Assembly (NCBI GenBank): GCA_964020085.1
Contig: OZ026600.1
Location: 26,202,738 to 26,266,737, forward strand
Direction: 5' to 3'
Source: Micromussa lordhowensis
Lineage: Eukaryota > Cnidaria > Anthozoa > Scleractinia > Lobophylliidae
DNA length: 64,000 bases
Part shown: positions 18,631 to 62,781 of the stretch, piece by piece
Numbering within the stretch: position 1 is the first letter of the stretch
Layout of the letters: every line of letters begins with the position of its first letter
Position numbers and translations under genes: made by a program
Notes under the pieces: generated by a model
Seen by the model: only the letters and a program-made list of their open reading frames with translations
Databases searched by the model: none
What the model was told of the DNA's origin: nothing

Positions 18631-18888
18631 TTCAACAGGTCTTTGGCTGCAGTAATACCCAAGGGGTCTGGGCATACAATACCACGTGTCAGACTTGAGC
18701 CAATCAAAAATTACGAGAAGAACGATACCAAAACGTTTTGAGAGACACGTCGGCCATTGTTGGTTACGAGCCTTGTGTTGTTAATGTATAGTTATTTCAC
18801 TTCTCCGGCACGCTAAACTGAAACGTAAGTCGTATTTGTGTACTTCTTTGGTATTATACAATTATAATCTTCCAGTAAATTATCAAGA
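18631..18888. promoter_or_regulatory. Shared bidirectional promoter region
   Basis: The two start codons are 258 bp apart and face away from each other. The interval contains CCACGTG at 18682-18688 (E-box/G-box) and CCAAT at 18700-18704, 11 bp apart, plus ACACGTC at about 18746. No TATA box is apparent for either gene. A potential donor AAAC|GTAAGT near 18825 might belong to a 5' UTR intron, but no partner acceptor is obvious. Confidence 0.55.
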
Positions 18889-20028
18889 ATGTCTAACACG
18901 CTTCTACAAAATGCAGGATTCGAAACATTCTTGAACATCGAAGACGTGGAAGATCCTTGTTTGGAAGACGATCTTTACGGCGAAATTTCGTGCTTTACAA
19001 AAGATATTTGGACCAATACAAGGTGCAGCAAGATGGAGGAAGACGACCTGCCTCTGACGAAATATCTTCTCCAGTTTAATACCGAAGGGCAATGGGATTC
19101 AGAAGAAGAAATTAGTGTGGGAGGGGAAAGTTTTGAAGACAGCACATGTGCTGACCAGCTAGGATGGGATATAGAACCAATTGATTTGGACACAGAGATA
19201 TTCGATTGTGTGGAGGCTACTCCAGATAAAACCGATGCTTCAAGCAAAGACGAGCAAGTAAAAGAGTTGAAAGGGAGATTGGAGAAGTCGGGCACCGTAA
19301 GAGAGACAAGCAATGTGGGGAATTTACATGAGCACGCAAATGATAAGAGTGAAAGTGGTAAGAAGCCAGAGGTAAAGAAAAAGAAGTCTGTGGGTAAAAG
19401 TCTTTCCAAAGCTGATTCAGTTCCTAATGGAAGAAAATCAAAAAGTCAAACAGAGTTTAAGATGGCTGTAAAAAATGTTTCTAATTCAGCAATTGAGCCT
19501 CAGAAATCCCCGACCACTGCAAAAAGTCAGGCTGAGAAAGCCAAAGAACAGCGTGAAAGAAAGAAGAAATATGTCCAGGAACTCCAGGATAACATAGCAG
19601 AACTGAAGAAAGACAAGGCTGACTTACAGCAGGTCACTGCTCAGCTGAATGGCAAATTAGAAGCTCTCATGGATGAGATCCGCTACTTGAAAGGTGTAAT
19701 CACCAATCAAAGCGAATTAGCCAGAATTTTAAAGAGTGTGGCCAACACTCCAGGGATTTCACTCAGCTGTGGTATATTGCAGGACTGTGAGGAGGGTAAT
19801 GACGGTAAGACAAACAAGAGAAAATATGATGCTCTAAACGATTCTGGTAAGAAGGGTGTTAATTTACGTCAAGAAAACAGCAAAAAGAGGAAAGTACATG
19901 TAGACATGAAGGCTACTGATGGAATGAGTCCTGTGGACGCTGGGGTGTGTGTACATGTGCAGAGTGGTAAAGTATCTCTTGAGTTCTGTGCAGAGTGCAG
20001 CAAGAAAGCCAACAGTATCATAAACTGA
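18889..20028 (+). CDS. CREBZF: CREBZF-like bZIP transcription factor, 379 aa
   Basis: An intronless 379-residue frame. The N-terminal half is acidic (residues 1-115). Residues 160-190 are Lys-rich and could serve as a nuclear localisation signal. A basic region (about 212-228, QRERKKKYVQEL) leads into six perfect leucine heptads: L232, L239, L246, L253, L260 and L267. The invariant Asn of classical bZIP basic regions is replaced (Gln214 by my alignment), as reported for vertebrate CREBZF/Zhangfei. The C-terminus GVCVHVQSGKVSLEFC...C closely matches the conserved CREBZF tail, which makes the orthology convincing. Known CREBZF is a nuclear cofactor that heterodimerises with ATF4/XBP1-type factors in stress signalling; that role is inferred here. 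The start has an AAGAATGTC context. Two AATAAA signals (22260, 22282) suggest a 2.25-kb 3' UTR. Confidence 0.88.
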   Translation: MSNTLLQNAGFETFLNIEDVEDPCLEDDLYGEISCFTKDIWTNTRCSKMEEDDLPLTKYLLQFNTEGQWDSEEEISVGGESFEDSTCADQLGWDIEPIDLDTEIFDCVEATPDKTDASSKDEQVKELKGRLEKSGTVRETSNVGNLHEHANDKSESGKKPEVKKKKSVGKSLSKADSVPNGRKSKSQTEFKMAVKNVSNSAIEPQKSPTTAKSQAEKAKEQRERKKKYVQELQDNIAELKKDKADLQQVTAQLNGKLEALMDEIRYLKGVITNQSELARILKSVANTPGISLSCGILQDCEEGNDGKTNKRKYDALNDSGKKGVNLRQENSKKRKVHVDMKATDGMSPVDAGVCVHVQSGKVSLEFCAECSKKANSIIN

Positions 20029-53179: not shown

Positions 53180-53314
53180 AGGCTCGATTTCCGCCGCTCT
53201 CTCGTGCCAGCGGTCTACGTTCCTCCCCGAAAAGAGAGTTCGAGGGGAGGAGCGCGGGCTCGTTTCCCGAACAGCGGCTGGAAATCTACTTCATGTATCG
53301 CTTCCAGATATCAT

Positions 53315-53375
53315 AGTAAACTATCCAACACTGCGTCCATTGTCGTACCGCAATAAGATTGGGGATAAATTTGGC
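53315..53375. repeat. Split direct repeat B2
   Basis: 61 bp, starting AGTAAACTATCCAACACTGC and ending GGGGATAAATTTGGC; identical to B1 at 53589-53649. Confidence 0.9.
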
Positions 53376-53510
53376 GACGCGACAACGGTCACAGTGTGGG
53401 AAAAAGAAAAGTAAGGGTGGGAGGGAGGGAAAGATAACTAGTCTAGCATTAGTTCCCAGGGCTTGCCCGTAAGCACCTCGTCGCCCCGTACCCGCACGAT
53501 CCCTCCCCGT

Positions 53511-53649
53511 GCTGCAGTTGAGCCAAAGTGATAATTTATTCACATGTGTTGGTTTTATATGCGTCACTTTAATGTATGCAGTGTGAATAGTAAACTATCC
53601 AACACTGCGTCCATTGTCGTACCGCAATAAGATTGGGGATAAATTTGGC
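53511..53649. repeat. Split direct repeats A2 and B1 (joined)
   Basis: A2 (53511-53591) matches A1 (60240-60320), starting GCTGCAGTTGAGCCAAAGTG and ending GTGTGAATAGT. B1 begins at the shared AGT (53589). Confidence 0.9.
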
Positions 53650-53799
53650 TCCTGTTACTTAATGTCACTAAGTCTGTTTCTATCTACCCGGTCAACGATG
53701 GGCTCCTCCCCAATACTAAACAGCCACCTAAGGAGACCAACGTTGGGCCGTCAAAAGAGAGGCATCCCTCTTCCTGAACCAAATCATAACTCCCCAAAA

Positions 53800-55209
53800 C
53801 TAAGCCCCGATCCAATTCCCTAACTCTGGGAGGTAGATTTTCATCGTACCTGACAGGCACTCTTCCGCGTAGGTTCTTTTCCCCTGATTGGTTGCAGGGA
53901 AGGCACACACAAAACGTTTTAGCTCATTAATGTCCTGCCAGGAGGCAGATGGCTCGGAGCCAACACTCGAGGCGAGCCTTGCCGAGGCCCCTGCTGGATT
54001 TAAGACTTTCGCTAGTTGCATGTAGTACAACGCTGTGTGGCGCCTTGACCATCCCACGTGATCCATGATTTCAGCCAGGTCCGCACCGGTAAGGGCCAGG
54101 GTAATTGCACAGCCTGACCGGAAACCGTGGAGCGTCTCACCGTTATCCGCACTCATTTCTTTAAGATAGCTCTTTAACCGTGATTCGGCTGCGGAGGAGG
54201 AAAAGGGGGCGTCTTTTATACCCAAATCTGGTGTAACTGGGCGGAAAAGGTAGCCACACGTTAAATCTACCCTCATATCACGAGTCACTTCCATGTAGCA
54301 CTCAATGCCTCGAATAGGGCAGATTTCCGCTTGCGCATTTCTTCTAACCCCAAACACATTTTCATCCCCATCCCTCAACGTCTTCCCCCAAATGTGGTTA
54401 AAGAGAAGCCCGTCATCATTGGGGAAACGAAGGATTTCAGGAACTTTAATCTGTCCCAAATCCCCTGGCCGATCTCCACTAAAGAAGGCCAGCTTAAAAT
54501 ATGCTTGGTCGCGAGCTATGATGAATCTGTCAATCGCCTTGTTAGACCCTTGCAGTTTTCTTTCTAAGTGCAAACATAATTGTGTCAATTTGTCAACAAA
54601 GAACGGCGCAGCCTGTTTCGGTGTTATACGGGCCTGCAGTTGTTCTGCGGTTACCAGCCTCAGGAAATCTTTGACGGATTTGTCAGACGCCGGGTTACCA
54701 AGGCCTAGGCGCTTGTCCCACTCGCCATCTCGTCCAATAGAGTGAAGAATGGCCCGTAACTTACCGATATAAGAGTCAATCGTTTTGTAAGATAAACGTA
54801 TTGCGCATCCACACGAAAATCGTCCCTTTTTGCCGATATGGTCGCAACCATTGCGGTGAATCTGCGTTTTGCCATCCTTATCCTTAAAAATAAGGAAACG
54901 ACAAACATCACGCGGGGTCACAGTGGCCAAAGTGACATGTCCCGGAAGTGAGGCCAGAAAGCTTTCAAACTCTTTTTGTAACGAGTCTTTCTGTTTAGCA
55001 TAGCTAGTAGCACGGTCCAAGTCCATTAGCTGCCGTAAACGTTGATCAATGCACTCCAAATCGACATTAACTTTTTTGACATTCGCTTTTGTCAAGACTT
55101 GCCGATTATAGCCACACCTTTGACAGAATCTAAAATCCTGGTCATTTGCATGGGAACAAGTCGGGCATCTGACGGATAGCGTAAACAACTTAGCAACAAC
55201 AGGAAGTTC
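53800..55209 (-). CDS. Ngaro-type tyrosine recombinase, about 469 aa
   Basis: The exon starts at 55209 after a CCCCTTAG acceptor and runs 469 codons; the first methionine is at 55188. The N-terminus has a zinc ribbon, CPTC...CQRC (CX2C twice), and a second Cys/His cluster (HRNGCDHIG, FSCGC). A helical core-binding region follows. The catalytic domain shows Arg in FFSGDRPGDL, the H-x-x-R pair in HGFRSG, the second His in DHVGW, and Tyr in ALYYMQL: a complete R-H-R-H-Y set. It would cut and join the circular DNA intermediate into the target, with no DDE integrase needed. No stop or frameshift is seen. The upstream intron donor, presumably at the end of the RT exon, is unresolved. Confidence 0.88.
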   Translation of the reverse strand, partial: ELPVVAKLFTLSVRCPTCSHANDQDFRFCQRCGYNRQVLTKANVKKVNVDLECIDQRLRQLMDLDRATSYAKQKDSLQKEFESFLASLPGHVTLATVTPRDVCRFLIFKDKDGKTQIHRNGCDHIGKKGRFSCGCAIRLSYKTIDSYIGKLRAILHSIGRDGEWDKRLGLGNPASDKSVKDFLRLVTAEQLQARITPKQAAPFFVDKLTQLCLHLERKLQGSNKAIDRFIIARDQAYFKLAFFSGDRPGDLGQIKVPEILRFPNDDGLLFNHIWGKTLRDGDENVFGVRRNAQAEICPIRGIECYMEVTRDMRVDLTCGYLFRPVTPDLGIKDAPFSSSAAESRLKSYLKEMSADNGETLHGFRSGCAITLALTGADLAEIMDHVGWSRRHTALYYMQLAKVLNPAGASARLASSVGSEPSASWQDINELKRFVCAFPATNQGKRTYAEECLSGTMKIYLPELGNWIGA

Positions 55210-55423
55210 CTAAGGGGAAAGAAAGGCGAGACGTTTGTAGTCTATGAAAGGAACGTTTTATTTCCTACATGTCATAGTTATTACATTGGATCAATTGAAG
55301 CTAAAGAAGAAAAAGAAAAAAACAGCTTATGACTCTAACGAGGGATCCCCCCACATGTCGGGGCTTCCCCAGTCCAATTAAATATTTACAAGCAATTCTA
55401 AAGCAATGTCACTGCTATGAGTT

Positions 55424-57676
55424 CTACTCAAAAGCTATCTGAAAAGCCCACAGTTTCCCTGGGATCTTGACTTCATTGTTCCAACCTTCCTTCGTAGGGA
55501 TTAACAAAGCATGCGAATCACCTAGATCTGCCATCTTTTGCGTTTTTCTGGAGATACATTGTAAAAACGGCCACCAATACTTCCTTGGGTATGTATCCAA
55601 AGCCACAAGCGTGCATGGCTGTCGGTGAGACTGGAGAAAACGCAAGACTGGGCCGACTAAGACATTTGGCGGGAAAACATATGGACGCTGCATAACAGAA
55701 GAGAACTTCATCAAATCTTGTGCAAACAGATTCACCCCAATCGAGCATGGCGAGGGCCACGGCGTAAAATGGGGAAGATGATTCCCTTGTTTGTCAGTCA
55801 TAGCATTTGAATCTAGGGCCATCAAATCACAGGAGTGGCCATTCAGACCGCCAAAGACCCGTTGTACCTCACTCCAGTTCTCCGGTGTTAGTGTGTAGTC
55901 CAAAGAAGATAGCCTGCGAGAAGGGGGATCCGCCGGGTTTTCCCGTGACGGGACGTACAACATGCGTAATAATAGATTCAGGTCCACCGTGGTAAAAAAT
56001 AATGCCTTGATAGCCTCGTTCAAATCATGACTTTTGCCTCCTTGATTAGTCCACGCATGCATGACTGCCTGGTTGTCAATCATGACATCGACGCGACAAT
56101 TTGTGACAAGATGTTTAAATGCTTGTAAGACCTTATCCACTGCCATGGCTTCCCTTGTCGCGATATCCAGCATCATCTCATCCTTTGACCAATAATCAGA
56201 TGCCTCCTGCTTCACAGGCGTAGAGATGACCCCACCCCATCCGGTTTGAGAGGCATCCGTTGCTATGTTAATCTGAAGATGTTTCTCTTCGCGCCAAGGT
56301 AGAGGGTCATCCCACCCTTCTAGAAATAACCAATGGGCGATCTCATCGCGCAGTGCACCCCGGATCGCAATTGGTTTCATTGTGCGCATACCCCTTGAGA
56401 TTGCTGCCGACATCTCTCTAGTAAACAGACGCGCTGCTGGAACAACCAGGGAAAAGGAGACGCACTTGCCGACCAAACGTTGAAGTGTCTTGACCGAAAC
56501 ATAACTCGAGCCTAATGTCTCTCGGATCAGCTCTAGGAACTTGCGCTTTTTGTCCGGGATCAGGTGGAAAACTTCCCTACTGGAGTCCCCGAGAAAGCCA
56601 AGATAAGGGACCATCTTTTGGGGGGTTAAGATTGACTTCGTTAGGCCCAGAAAATATCCCAAACGTACCAAATAGAACGCCACAAGAAATACTGCTGATT
56701 TGGCCGCCGCCAAATTACGCTCATCTGCAGAGTGTAGGGTACCATATTCCCCTTTGTTAGGTGGCACCTGGAGTTGACCATTATGCCTATCATCAATATA
56801 TAGGAGACATGGGATCCCCAACGAGCGCAGAAAATTAGACGCCATAAGGCCCGTCGAATGATACACATAAGGGGAGATCTTCCAGCCAAACGGTAGGGAG
56901 TTATATGTAAAGTACCAACCACCCCACTGGATTCCGAAATATGTACGACTTTCTTCCGACAGCAAAAGGTGGTCGTATCCAGATTTGTCGTCAAGGACGG
57001 TCTGATAAGAGTCCTTGAAAACATACCGAGGCAAATCTGTCACCCTATCCAGGGTGAAAGGCTTCTCTAGCATCCACAAGTTTAGGTACCGCGCATCATG
57101 ACACAATCTCGGCTTTGATGGCTCAACCGTCAACGGTAGTACAATTTGGGGCGGGGTTACTTGGCCAACCTTACCCACCAAAGAGATCGCACCAGTTCTT
57201 AGACGACTTAAAAGTGTCGTCCTGACAAACTCCCCAAACTGTTTACAAGATACATTATTTTTAAACAATCTGTGGGGTGGCCGGTCGGAATCGTAATGTT
57301 CCCCCTTGAACGTTCCCTTAAAGTGTTTGAAATATGGGAATATCGACACCTTATTCCCAATCCAAGACAAGACCTCCTCCTGGTGTGATGAAGGAGCAAG
57401 TTTCGCGATTTCTGTCCACTGGGTTATGCGTTTGTGAAGTTCCCCCGCCACAAAAGTATCAGGATCCCGAAATAGCAACTCTTCGACATGCCCGATAATT
57501 TCTCCATTCTCAACCAGTCGAGTTTTCTGCATCAGGTGGTCATTTTCTGTCCCCTCACTGCTGACCGATACGGGGTTCCCCCTTACGTCTATCCACTGTA
57601 TCGCACCTGCGCGATCACCAAAGTTGTTGATAAAGTTATCAAAGTTGTCATGTTTTTCCCATGACCAGAATGTTGC
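55424..57676 (-). CDS. DIRS-type reverse transcriptase-RNase H, about 750 aa
   Basis: Opens at 57676 after the acceptor TTTCCCCTTAG and stays open for 750 codons; the first methionine is at 57532. RT motifs in order: PLTVEPSKPRLCHDARYLN, VLDDKSGYDHL, SLPFGWKISPYVY and the catalytic LLYIDD. An RNase H domain follows with INIATDASQTGWGG (Asp), TREAMAVDKVL (Glu), VMIDNQAVMHAW (Asp) and ENPADPPSR (Asp). The last 150 residues resemble the C-terminal extension of DIRS/Ngaro polymerases. No methyltransferase motif is seen, which favours Ngaro over DIRS1. The frame is intact. The 49 residues before the first methionine are open, and together with the acceptor they suggest a spliced gag-pol message. 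Confidence 0.9.
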   Translation of the reverse strand, partial: ATFWSWEKHDNFDNFINNFGDRAGAIQWIDVRGNPVSVSSEGTENDHLMQKTRLVENGEIIGHVEELLFRDPDTFVAGELHKRITQWTEIAKLAPSSHQEEVLSWIGNKVSIFPYFKHFKGTFKGEHYDSDRPPHRLFKNNVSCKQFGEFVRTTLLSRLRTGAISLVGKVGQVTPPQIVLPLTVEPSKPRLCHDARYLNLWMLEKPFTLDRVTDLPRYVFKDSYQTVLDDKSGYDHLLLSEESRTYFGIQWGGWYFTYNSLPFGWKISPYVYHSTGLMASNFLRSLGIPCLLYIDDRHNGQLQVPPNKGEYGTLHSADERNLAAAKSAVFLVAFYLVRLGYFLGLTKSILTPQKMVPYLGFLGDSSREVFHLIPDKKRKFLELIRETLGSSYVSVKTLQRLVGKCVSFSLVVPAARLFTREMSAAISRGMRTMKPIAIRGALRDEIAHWLFLEGWDDPLPWREEKHLQINIATDASQTGWGGVISTPVKQEASDYWSKDEMMLDIATREAMAVDKVLQAFKHLVTNCRVDVMIDNQAVMHAWTNQGGKSHDLNEAIKALFFTTVDLNLLLRMLYVPSRENPADPPSRRLSSLDYTLTPENWSEVQRVFGGLNGHSCDLMALDSNAMTDKQGNHLPHFTPWPSPCSIGVNLFAQDLMKFSSVMQRPYVFPPNVLVGPVLRFLQSHRQPCTLVALDTYPRKYWWPFLQCISRKTQKMADLGDSHALLIPTKEGWNNEVKIPGKLWAFQIAFE

Positions 57677-57972
57677 CTAAGGGGAAAAAAGGATTTTTTT
57701 TTAAAGAACCCCGTAGAAGCCAGCAGAGAGAGGACAGTCTTGACCCAGTATGACCGGGAGGGTTTGAGATACCCCGTTTTCAAAACTCTCAACTCTCTGT
57801 GACTACAGTACAGGTAACAACAACAATGTGCGAGAACAGAAGGGAAACAAATAAGTGTTACAGGCAGGTGTTACTGATCCCTCCACCTACCCTTGTAAAG
57901 GCGATACTAACCGAATACCACTTAAGAATCGCATTAAATCGAGAAAAAAAAAAAAAAGAAACCGGACAAGTT

Positions 57973-60164
57973 TCAAATGTTTATTGCGCTCATTGAACTT
58001 GTTATTAACATGATTATCACTGTTATTACAACTTGTTTTCCTTTCATGCGCTTCAGTGGTTTAGTACACCTATCAGAACTTGTCACTTTAGCACGACCTC
58101 GGGTTGCTGAGGGCCTCTGCTGTGCACCCCTCCTTGCATAACACCTTGCCATAATGTGGCCATACTTTCCACAAAAATAACATTGGACGGGAGCGCCACT
58201 TCTCCAGCCACGACCTCTATATGGGGCATCACCACGTTCACGGTAAGAAGATTCAGACGACGGGCTTCTCCCAGTCATCGCTTTCTCCACCTTCGCAACC
58301 GCCTCGTACACTTTCGTATGGTCTTTGTCCCCGAGGAGGCGCAGAACCAAAGCGCGAAAATGTTCCTTTGGGAGGTCTACCTTTGCCCTGGCTGTCTGAT
58401 ACACAAGGCGGTAGAAATCGCGTTTCTCATCCTGATTATCCCTGGAGGTATTCTGAAGGGTCTCCAGAATATCAATCGCCTCGTACTTGTTAAACTCTGA
58501 AAGCGGTCGTGCCGCATAATCGAGCATCTTCCTTATCACAGAGGCCACAGAGAGTTTCGTCAACTCCTCAAGAGACTTTTGTAAATGACCAAACTTTTCC
58601 TTTAGAGTCTAGGAGAGCAAATAAGGGAAGAGTCAGATTATACGAACATCAACTCACGAAGTTTCTTTTGTTTTAGCGAACTCTCGCCCCATTGCATTAC
58701 AGAAAAAAAAAAAAAAAACACAGATTTTCATTGCATTATCGAAAAACTTCCACTGCATTGCCGAAAGACTCGAATTTCCCTTTTCCATTTTCAATTTTTA
58801 TTTATTTATTTATTTTATTTTCCAATTTCATTTTTATTTATGTATTGTATGGGGAACACCCCCCTCCGTCCTAAGGCGAGCTCTCGCCCATTTCTTTTCC
58901 TTTTTATTTTCATGGAGAATCCTCATACATTTCTTTCTCCTTTTTTTTTTTTTTTTCCAAAGTGAATTCTCACCTCATCACTTTCCTTTCCTTTTCTCAT
59001 GGCGAACTCTCGCCCCATCATTTTGTTCTATTTCTCATAGCGAACTCTCGCCCCATCACTTTTTCCTATTTCTCATGGCGAACTCTCGCCCCATCACTTT
59101 CCCTATTTCTCATGGCGAACTCTCGCCCCATCACTTTGTTCTATTTCTCATAGCGAACTCTCGCCCCATCACTTTCCTCTTTCTCATGGCGAACTCTCGC
59201 CCCATCACTTTCCTTATTTCTCATGGCGAACTCTCGCCCCATCACTTCCCTTTTCTATTTTCATGGCGAACTCACGCCCCATCACTTTCTATTTCTCATG
59301 GAGAACTCTCGCCCCATTGCTCTTTCTTTTTTTTTTTTTTTTTTTTTTTTTCTTTTTTTTGGTGAACTCTCACCCCATAGCTCATTCGCGTTATCCTGAG
59401 TTACAACATTTCACCTCTATACAATAAAGACACGCACATCAGTGAACAGTAAGTTCCCGCCCCATCTGAGTGTTGCATATAAATTCTCGACAACAATTGA
59501 GAGAAAAATACAATCCGCGAAAGCCGCTAATGAAGCATTCACTCCATTACAAATAACTCCAATATCCCGGTGTGTTGAATACAATACTAAGAAACCAGAG
59601 AAGACAAAAACAAAGGAAAAAGAAAAAAAAAAAAAGAAACCCGCCAAGGTCCAAATTTAATAGACTAAAGCTGTTCACAACTAACTAACCGGCAAACGCG
59701 GACAAACTGAGCGGGGAAAAAACCCGAAAAATAACGAAAAAACCCCATACAACACGAAGTACATGTAAACGAAACGCATTTACCTCAAGCTCTCCTTGAG
59801 TTGGTTCCACGTGCACAGCTTCTTGTGGAGCCACTGGAACTTGCGCCGGTGGAATTTGTTGGGCTGGAACTTGCGCCGGCGGAATCTGTTGGGCTGGAAC
59901 TTGCGCCGGCGGAATTTGTTGGGCTGGAACTTGCGCCGGTGGAAACTGTTGGGCTTGAGCAGGTAAGATAGCCTGGCCCACAACAAGTTGAGCGCCCTGG
60001 TTTTCAGCCGGTTGAGGAGGTTGAACTGGCGCCGGCAAAACTTCTACGTCTCCACGAGGCACTTGACCATCTTGGGCCGCTTGTTCCGCGCCCGCTTGCA
60101 ATTCATCCACTTGTATAGGTCTCAGACGACCACGAACCGGGCCGGGGTATTGTACATTCGCCAT
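57973..60164 (-). CDS. Ngaro gag-like ORF1, two exons, about 338 aa
   Basis: Exon 1 is 60164-59784 (start MANVQYPGP; donor CTTGAG|GTAAAT, phase 0). Exon 2 is 58608-57973 (acceptor CTCTCCTAG, phase 0; TLKEKFGHLQKSLEELTKLS). Exon 1 has a Pro/Gln-rich run of PPAQVPAQQI decapeptides, about four copies. Exon 2 is helical and ends with a CX2CX4HX4C zinc knuckle (CYFCGKYGHIMARC) after an Arg/Gly-rich stretch, typical of nucleocapsid-like RNA binding. The 1.18-kb intron contains a tandem repeat. The exon join is inferred from phase and consensus, not observed. A downstream splice to the RT exon is likely, but its donor is not certain. Confidence 0.75.
58960..59380. repeat. About eleven tandem 33-41-bp units in the Ngaro intron
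   Basis: Units read ATGGCGAACTCTCGCCCCAT then CACTTTCC and a T/C-rich spacer ending TTTCTC. GGCGA and TCGCC flank four bases, so every unit can form a small stem-loop. The array decays at the edges into poly-T (59322-59360). Confidence 0.9.
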
Positions 60165-60239
60165 CCAAGTAAAGTAATAACACGAGGCAAGGAAATTCCA
60201 ACTATTCGAGCGACACGAACTGGAGCACAACCGAACCGC

Positions 60240-60320
60240 GCTGCAGTTGAGCCAAAGTGATAATTTATTCACATGTGTTGGTTTTATATGCGTCACTTTA
60301 ATGTATGCAGTGTGAATAGT
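60240..60320. repeat. Split direct repeat A1 (Ngaro 5' end)
   Basis: 81 bp identical to A2 at 53511-53591; it ends at AGT, followed by unrelated GTATCTAATACATG. Confidence 0.9.
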
Positions 60321-60528: not shown

Positions 60529-60532
60529 AAAA

Positions 60533-60569
<37 letters not shown>

Positions 60570-60597
60570 TATAGCCAACTCGGCGCTACGCGAGCTT

Positions 60598-60654
<57 letters not shown>

Positions 60655-60658
60655 TTAA
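60529..60658. repeat. Large palindrome right of the Ngaro element
   Basis: The left arm has CAATTATTCCA, TTGTTGGATATGAGATGAT and TAGCCAAC. The right arm has GTTGGCTA, ATCATCTCATATCCAAC and TGGAATAATTG. The centre is CGGCGCTACGCGAGCTTACGC. Confidence 0.85.
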
Positions 60659-60728: not shown

Positions 60729-62781
60729 TAGTACTGAAATTAAATCTGCTAAAGAATTACTTTACAATAATAAGTTTATCGAACCCAATGGCGACCCGCG
60801 TAAAACATGGCAAATCATCAACGATCTTACATCTCTTCAGGCCATCAATTCATCGATTAGAGAAATAAATCTAAATGGTATTTCTATATCTGAATCATCC
60901 GACTTGTCGAATGCATTCAATGACCATTTCTCATCAATAAGGACCTAAACTTGCTAATGACATCCCATTATCTAATAACAATCGCCACTGTAACCTGAAA
61001 TATGTCGAAGGCACTAACAATAGATTCGAATTCCGCCCTACAAATAGTAGACAGCCTTTAAACCTACTGAATAAACTAAATAAGTCTAAAGGGGCTGGTC
61101 TCGACAAGCTATCGAACCGGCTTATTCTGGAATGTGCTGACCTTATTTCGCCATATATCTCAATTATCTTTAATTGTTGTCTAGCTACCGGCATATTCCC
61201 TGATGACTGGAAATTGGCCAAAGTTACGCCTATATTCAAGCAGGGCGATAGAAGTGATATGGACAATTATCACCCAATTTCTGTAATCTCAGCAATAGCA
61301 AAAGTCTTTGAGAGAATTGTTTATAATCAGCTTTCTTCCTATTTATCCGAAAACACAATATTTTGTCACAGCATCAGTCTGGCTTTCGATCTTTTCACTC
61401 AACTGTAACCGCTTTGCTCGAAGCCGCTGATAATTGGCCTTTTAACATAGATCGTGGCTATGTTAACGCTGTTGTCTTTTTAGATCTAAAAAAAGCATTT
61501 GGCACAGTCAATCGCTCTATTTTATTATCCAAACTATATTCATATGGAGTCAAAGGACATACTTACGAATTACGTTCTTCTTACTTACACAATCGTACGC
61601 AAAAATGCACTGTCAATGGTGTCCTTTCTAAAAGTCCCCCTTTAACTTGTGGGATTCCCAAGGGGGCGATACTGGGGCCTTTACTGTTTCTCTTATATAT
61701 TAATGACTTACCCAATTGCTTACTATCAGATTACTTACTTACTTAATCCTCTTCGTGCTCGGTAGCACATAAGGCCGATTACTATCAGATTCGTAACCAA
61801 GAATGTATGCGGATGATATTCACCTAACATATGCTGACAACGACATCTGCTCCATTGAGGCTTCCTTAAATCAGGACTTTGTGTCAAACATAAACCGTTG
61901 GCTTATTGCCAATAAATTAACTCTTAACATGGCGAAAACTGAATTTATGTTAATTGGATCAAGACAAAAATTAAACAGTCTAGTCGTTCTTCCTGCGTTG
62001 GAAATTAATGGTACACAATTAACCAGAGTCAATTTTACCAAGTCTCTTGGTGTGTTAATTGACGAAAATTTAACATGGAGTAATCAAATCAACGTTATAT
62101 CTAAAAAAAATATCTTCTGGTATTGGATCTATTAAACGAATTAGTCACTGGGTTCCTCCTGCAACTCTACAAAATATTTGTCATGGGTTAGTCCAATCGC
62201 ACTTTGACTATTGTAGTGTTGTTTGGGATAACTGCTCCAAAACATTATCTGACAAATTACAAAAACTTCAAAATCGCGCTGTCCGCGTCCTTACTCGTTC
62301 TAGTTATGATGCTGGTGCCAACCAACTAGTTACAGAACTAGGCTGGGAAAATTTAGAAACTCGACAAAGGCTGAGATGGTCTATAAATCCTTAAATGTCC
62401 TCACACCCAATTATTTGTCCTCGAGATTCATTCAGCGGAGTGATGTGATTACTTCTTACAATTTGCGCAATTCTGAAACTAAGCTTGCTATTCCCTTGCC
62501 ACGTACAAACTATTATAAAAATAGCTTTGGCTGTAGTGGTGCAGTCCTATGGAACAGCCTACTCTCAGCTGCTAGGCAAGCAACATCTCTGAGTAATTTC
62601 CGACGATTGTTAAATTCCGACACGGCATTCATGTAAAACAGGCTTTAATTTAGTTTACTTTCTTCAATAGTTAGTAGTATTTTAAATAAGATTAATCTGT
62701 AGACATAGGTTTTCGTAATAAGTTGTAGCTTTTACATTAAATTGTTAATGCCTGATGTACTTTACCGTGTTTTTAAATAAA

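What the first reader, a model, noticed from the sequence alone, without database searches (positions are those of the whole stretch)
53315..60320. Intact Ngaro-like tyrosine-recombinase retrotransposon with diagnostic A1...B1-A2-B2 ends
All hallmarks can be read directly: split direct repeats (81 and 61 bp), AGT at all three junctions, zinc-knuckle gag, RT with YIDD, RNase H with D-E-D-D, and a recombinase with R-H-R-H-Y. Every frame is open and the repeat copies look identical, so the copy is young and may be able to move.
Basis: partly seen in the sequence, partly recalled or inferred. Interest (0 to 1): 0.88.

Follow-up and report, generated by a model that had tools for sequence, protein, structure and literature searches.

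The report
Alternatively spliced ALOG-type recombinase retrotransposon
This is a young jumping gene in what looks like a stony coral genome that inserts itself with a site-specific recombinase, and its layout suggests that it makes its three proteins much as a retrovirus does, by splicing one shared starting piece onto each of three downstream genes.

Summary
Observation confirmed: a split-repeat tyrosine-recombinase (YR) retrotransposon lies on the minus strand at 53313-60320, in a young family (26 nearly full-length YR copies at 99% or more; 28 complete 3' ends; both lower bounds). Two corrections. (1) It is not Ngaro by definition: the RT ORF ends in a methyltransferase-fold domain, which Ngaro lacks, and the YR carries a zinc ribbon and an ALOG domain; it fits the ALOG class of DIRS/PAT-like elements described in 2012. 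(2) This copy is not pristine: its gag 3' frame differs from 18 of 18 other copies and its YR stop from 20 of 20. New point: each of the three ORFs opens directly after the TAG of a pyrimidine-tract acceptor-like site, and a 127-codon leader ORF meets a donor-like site GAG|GTAAAT; all four are phase 0. The YR site recurs in 10 of 11 other loci, and codons before the first ATG look protein-constrained. I infer retrovirus-like alternative splicing of one leader to gag, RT and YR. No RNA was available to prove it.

The parts
60236..60320 (-). A1 repeat, 5' end of the element; holds TATAAAA and AATAAA-like strings
59784..60164 (-). leader exon coding part: ATG at 60164, 127 codons, proline-rich, ends GELE at the donor-like site GAG|GTAAAT (first intron base 59783)
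   Evidence: splicing inferred
58609..59783 (-). inferred first intron (leader to gag, 1175 nt), with a 36-40 bp tandem repeat; acceptor-like site CTCTCCTAG at its end
   Evidence: inferred
57973..58608 (-). gag exon/ORF with CCHC knuckle; 3' frame differs from 18 of 18 other copies
55424..57676 (-). RT-RNase H-methyltransferase-fold ORF (750 aa), opens after CCCCTTAG
55427..55924 (-). C-terminal 166 aa of that ORF: adenine-methyltransferase fold, usual catalytic motif apparently lost
53800..55209 (-). YR ORF (469 aa): zinc ribbon, ALOG domain, tyrosine recombinase; opens after CCCCTTAG; the stop of 20 of 20 other copies is missing
53587..53649 (-). B1 repeat
53507..53591 (-). A2 repeat, joined to B1 (5-bp overlap): the internal copy of the end-to-end joint
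53376..53506 (-). 131-bp spacer between A2 and B2
53313..53375 (-). B2 repeat, 3' end of the element

Best explanation
A recently amplified tyrosine-recombinase retrotransposon of the ALOG class with PAT-like anatomy (split direct repeats plus a methyltransferase-like domain). Inferred expression: one transcript starts in or near A1; a leader exon supplies the start codon, and its phase-0 donor is joined, alternatively, to one of three phase-0 acceptors, giving leader-gag, leader-RT/RH/MT and leader-YR proteins with the same N-terminal 127 residues, while unspliced RNA serves as genome. Inferred replication (published model for split-repeat elements): the B1-A2 joint helps to close the cDNA into a circle, and YR inserts the circle at the ACT core without a target-site duplication. 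Shown here: anatomy, copy number, ends, sites and phases, protein-like constraint before the first ATG, the MT fold. Inferred: the splicing itself, the role of the leader, the circle, present activity.
For: All three ORFs open right after a TAG that ends a pyrimidine tract; fractions of the window's 6910 stop codons that are TAG with at least that tract: 0.0012, 0.020, 0.0012. Donor and acceptors all phase 0. First Met only at codon 28 (gag), 49 (RT) and 62 (YR, after the zinc ribbon). Pre-ATG codons pN/pS 0.38 (YR) and 0.60 (RT) between two families. Same layout for RT and YR in L041, for YR in 10 of 11 further loci, for RT and gag in one 70% family. Upstream-extended homologues: Q at -1 in 9 of 14 (YR), Q or K in 9 of 10 (gag). 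Two Actinostola gene models start with a similar leader ending QEGELE that runs into RT. Class: ALOG and integrase domains, MT fold, RT-RNase H fold. Youth.
Against: No transcript evidence at all. For RT, upstream-extended homologues do not show the -1 Q/K pattern (0 of 12; one has E). L053 lacks the YAG at the expected place. No leader was found in the diverged families of this genome. The Actinostola models join the leader to an internal RT point, not to its start. A long ORF outside the element (60338, -) also follows a TAG with a tract of 0.65. No spliced leader-YR copy in the assembly; leader-gag and leader-RT joints could not be searched.
Confidence: 0.77

Rival explanations
1. A Ngaro element in the strict sense whose ORFs are translated from one unspliced RNA by reinitiation, internal entry or non-AUG starts.
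For: The repeat order A1-ORFs-B1-A2-B2 is the Ngaro one (passages). Near-cognate codons exist before the first ATG (one search lists TTG starts).
Against: Methyltransferase-fold domain against the stated absence in Ngaro. Each ORF begins at a YAG with a pyrimidine tract, kept where the other upstream sequence has diverged.
Confidence: 0.1
2. The acceptor-like sites are real but are used by spliced-leader trans-splicing, not by the cis leader.
For: Trans-splicing of spliced leaders is known in some cnidarians (Hydra; recalled, no call). No diverged family was shown to have the cis leader.
Against: A trans-spliced leader would normally bring no start codon, and the ORFs lack an early ATG; the cis leader offers an ATG and a phase-0 donor and is kept in 27 copies.
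Confidence: 0.06
3. Only RT and YR are made from spliced RNA; gag starts at its own ATG on unspliced RNA, as in retroviruses.
For: The leader donor is supported outside this family by few sequences; the first gag Met at codon 28 could be a start.
Against: The gag site has one of the two strongest tracts, recurs in L056 and in 9 of 10 upstream-extended gag homologues.
Confidence: 0.07

Closest known systems
ALOG-class DIRS1-like retroposons (Iyer and Aravind 2012, PMC3537659; passages, section 6 read)
   Same: YR with zinc ribbon, ALOG domain and recombinase domain; RT-RNase H; methylase-like domain; gag with zinc knuckle; direct repeats; reported in Nematostella and Acropora among others
   Different: The paper calls all metazoan copies inactive, and its text has no occurrence of 'intron'; here the family is young with open frames, split direct repeats and a splice-like layout
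PAT-like elements, Pat1 type (passages of PMC4157794)
   Same: Split direct repeats, methyltransferase-like domain, gag zinc finger
   Different: ALOG YR not mentioned in the passages seen; no RT tree was made here
Ngaro elements (passages)
   Same: A1-ORFs-B1-A2-B2 repeats
   Different: Methyltransferase-fold domain present here; ALOG YR
Retroviruses (general knowledge, recalled)
   Same: One 5' donor, downstream acceptors, unspliced RNA as genome (inferred here)
   Different: Here gag and polymerase too would be spliced, all three proteins would share a coding leader, and insertion is by a tyrosine recombinase

Membership tests
Ngaro | Split direct repeats A1...B1-A2-B2 | tested here: met
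Ngaro | No methyltransferase domain | tested here: not met
Ngaro | RT/YR groups with named Ngaro references in a tree | not tested
   no named reference sequences at hand
PAT-like | Split direct repeats plus methyltransferase domain | tested here: met
PAT-like | Zinc finger in gag (Pat1 type) | tested here: met
   CX2CX4HX4C string; Pfam knuckle only E 0.006, below its cut-off
PAT-like | RT groups with PAT references in a tree | not tested
   no named reference sequences at hand
ALOG-class DIRS1-like retroposon | YR with zinc ribbon, ALOG domain and recombinase domain | tested here: met
   PF04852 E 2e-19, PF00589 E 1e-7; CX2C...CX2C string
ALOG-class DIRS1-like retroposon | RT-RNase H, methylase-like domain, gag zinc knuckle | tested here: met
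   catalytic inactivity of the methylase itself not testable here
ALOG-class DIRS1-like retroposon | Terminal direct repeats | tested here: met
   as split direct repeats; the Ectocarpus element is described with 159-bp terminal direct repeats

The most novel reading that the evidence does not exclude
ALOG-class YR retrotransposons of corals and anemones express gag, polymerase and recombinase by alternative cis-splicing of one coding leader exon to three phase-0 acceptors; all three proteins thus carry the same N-terminal proline-rich tag, which may bring them into one particle without polyprotein, protease or frameshift.
Probability: 0.65. Interest if true: 0.74.

Novelty: new variant of a known kind. 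Interest (0 to 1): 0.62.

Why it matters
How YR retrotransposons make three separate proteins from one element is, as far as I recall, not settled. If true, this class converges on the retroviral answer and goes further, by splicing gag as well. The layout is directly testable in coral and anemone RNA data. The family also shows that ALOG-type elements, described in 2012 as inactive in all the metazoans examined, were recently mobile in an animal; the same domain is found in plants as the ALOG developmental regulators.

Tried and rejected
Methylase by sequence: no Dam family was among the 14 families listed for the 38 RT homologues, and the 60 best PDB sequence matches shown (of 195) were reverse transcriptases. 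The whole 750-residue model's listed rows reached only residue 590. The domain folded alone gave the methyltransferase matches. A Foldseek search as such did not complete, and the YR fold was not predicted.

Solo A2-spacer-B2 footprints, expected if YR also used the internal joint: all 28 matches at about 100% lie beside a YR when the coordinates are compared (one search scored 40 of 59 candidates, so this is a lower bound). One 80% match (C2:23064002) had no YR match near it; not followed.

Relatives elsewhere: none in viral contigs; one in prokaryote genome contigs, a degraded stretch in a MAG (L042), whose leader-like donor (GAG|GTATTT, phase 0) is only suggestive. Leader in diverged families of this genome: not found by protein search. 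L054 missed the RT boundary.

Spliced copies: the leader-YR junction pattern gave 0 matches at up to 3 mismatches; leader-gag and leader-RT patterns did not complete.

Papers: searches (listings) and in-text searches showed me no description of such splicing. The library holds open-licence papers only; Goodwin and Poulter 2004/2005 were not seen, and I recall that introns in some YR elements may be mentioned there.
Full report
What is there. On the minus strand of 53313-60320 lies a 7,008-bp element: A1, ORFs, B1-A2, a 131-bp spacer, B2. A1/A2 differ at 1 of 85 positions; B1/B2 are identical. The genome of the window (581 Mb, 1383 contigs) gave 95 YR matches, a lower bound; 26 cover the YR nearly end to end at 99% or more, the window included, and further groups stand at about 72, 54, 49, 44% and less. 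The closest named protein is from Oculina patagonica, 84%, so the host is inferred to be a stony coral. An A2-spacer-B2 query found 28 places at about 100%.

Youth and state. I fetched 20 other copies; with the window that is 21. Mean pairwise divergence: YR 0.17% (21 copies), RT 0.21% (21), gag 0.24% (19), leader 0.16% (16), three non-coding pieces 0.80% (18), 0.53% (21) and 0.68% (21). The RT frame is open in 15 of 21 (4 with length changes, 2 with one stop), the leader in 16 of 16. The window copy has two private changes: the gag 3' frame differs from 18 of 18 others, and the YR stop of 20 of 20 others is missing, which adds a short tail. The family was recently mobile; nothing here shows that it moves today.

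Ends and target. The 3' overlap is ACT in 21 of 21; the 5' overlap is ACT in 12 of 18, GCT in 3, TCT, CCT and AAT in 1 each. After the core the 3' flank prefers A, T, T (15, 17, 16 of 21); the 5' flank has A at -8 in 14 of 18 (binomial P 1e-4, 2e-6, 2e-5 and 4e-5, with about 96 letters tested). I read this as recombinase insertion that tolerates mismatches in the overlap at one end (inference). No empty site was examined.

The splice layout. Read stop to stop, gag, RT and YR open at 58608, 57676 and 55209. The stop before each is TAG and ends a pyrimidine tract: TTTGCTCTCCTAG, TTTTTTCCCCTTAG, TTTCTTTCCCCTTAG. Of 6910 stop codons in the window, the fraction that are TAG with at least that tract is 0.0012, 0.020 and 0.0012. 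Against this: of the 9 ORFs of 180 codons or more in the window, 2 others also follow a TAG, with tracts 0.40 and 0.65. First Met: codon 28, 49 and 62. A leader ORF with ATG at 60164 runs 127 codons to GELE and meets GAG|GTAAAT; donor score 5 of 7, reached by 3.2% of all GT in the window. Inferred introns: 1175, 2107 and 4574 nt. In the 21 copies the donor string is identical in 18 and not found in 3; gag acceptor identical in 19, not found in 2; RT acceptor identical in 20, changed but with AG kept in 1; YR acceptor identical in 19, one exon change in 1, one base shorter in the tract in 1. The strings not found lie in loci L024, L027 and L032; L024 and L032 have withheld letters.

Beyond the family. 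In L041 (72% YR) RT and YR open right after TTTCCTACTTTAG and CTTTCTCGATTATAG. Of 11 further loci, 10 have the site at the expected YR boundary in phase 0: 6 as a stop TAG, 4 as Q (CAG in the 2 whose DNA was printed). L053 (33%, measured against P0071) does not, though its ORF opens after TTTTAG 45 codons earlier. These loci are not all independent (L045-L047, and L050-L051, are near copies). In the C6 family (70%) RT opens after CCCTCCTTAG and gag after GCTCTCCATAG. For 9 sequences (L046, L047, L051 dropped as near copies, L053 dropped as lacking the site) AG is shared by all, pyrimidines are 0.84 in -20..-3, and identity is 0.30 in -60..-31, 0.40 in -30..-3, 0.54 in +1..+30.

Homologous proteins that extend upstream of the boundary: YR 14 of 120 listed (of 330 found), Q at -1 in 9; gag 10 of 50, Q or K in 9; RT 12 of 120 listed (of 408 found), Q or K in none and E in 1, with one Q a few residues away (P0208). 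So the RT site is less well supported by proteins than the other two. Codons between acceptor and first ATG: pN/pS 0.38 (YR, 61 codons) and 0.60 (RT, 46 codons), against 0.21 and 0.26 after it; synonymous sites are near saturation.

The leader. One search gave 27 strong matches, 20 of them identical over the 126-residue query (59790-60167, which begins one codon before the ATG and ends two before the donor). Two gene models of the anemone Actinostola start MAEVQFPEEP...QEGELE and run into RT at an internal point; gene models are not transcripts. No leader-YR joint exists in the assembly at up to 3 mismatches, which neither supports nor refutes splicing.

Mechanism and confidence. I hold the class at about 0.9 and the splicing model at about 0.75. 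A shared N-terminus on gag, RT and YR could bring them together; that is a guess. The circle model comes from the literature on split-repeat elements (passages) and fits the identical B1-A2 joint in 21 of 21 copies. The A repeat holds TATAAAA and AATAAA 19 bp apart; their role is unknown.

Noticed in passing
61363-61743 (+): Reverse-transcriptase fragment (PF00078, E 1e-12) beside the element, of non-LTR look by eye.
   Followed up: partly
18868-20025 (+): 386-codon ORF with only weak coiled-coil-type Pfam matches below cut-off.
   Followed up: no
58980-59320: Tandem repeat of 35-40 bp (GCGAACTCTCGCCCCATCACTTT) inside the inferred first intron.
   Followed up: no
60531-60656: Inverted repeat, arms of 39 nt, 87% complementary, just outside the 5' end of the element.
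   Followed up: no
whole genome: At least 95 ALOG-type YR matches in several families, many with open frames: a large radiation in one animal genome.
   Followed up: partly
G000:C2:23064002-23064267: 80% match to A2-spacer-B2 with no YR match near it: a possible solo end of a related family.
   Followed up: no
P0052 (Exaiptasia): A coral-type retrotransposon recombinase is named after a plant regulator (LIGHT-DEPENDENT SHORT HYPOCOTYLS 5) in a public record, through its ALOG domain.
   Followed up: no
L042 (4971 bp): A contig filed as a Poribacteria MAG carries a degraded relative of this animal-type element, so it looks like contamination from a host.
   Followed up: partly
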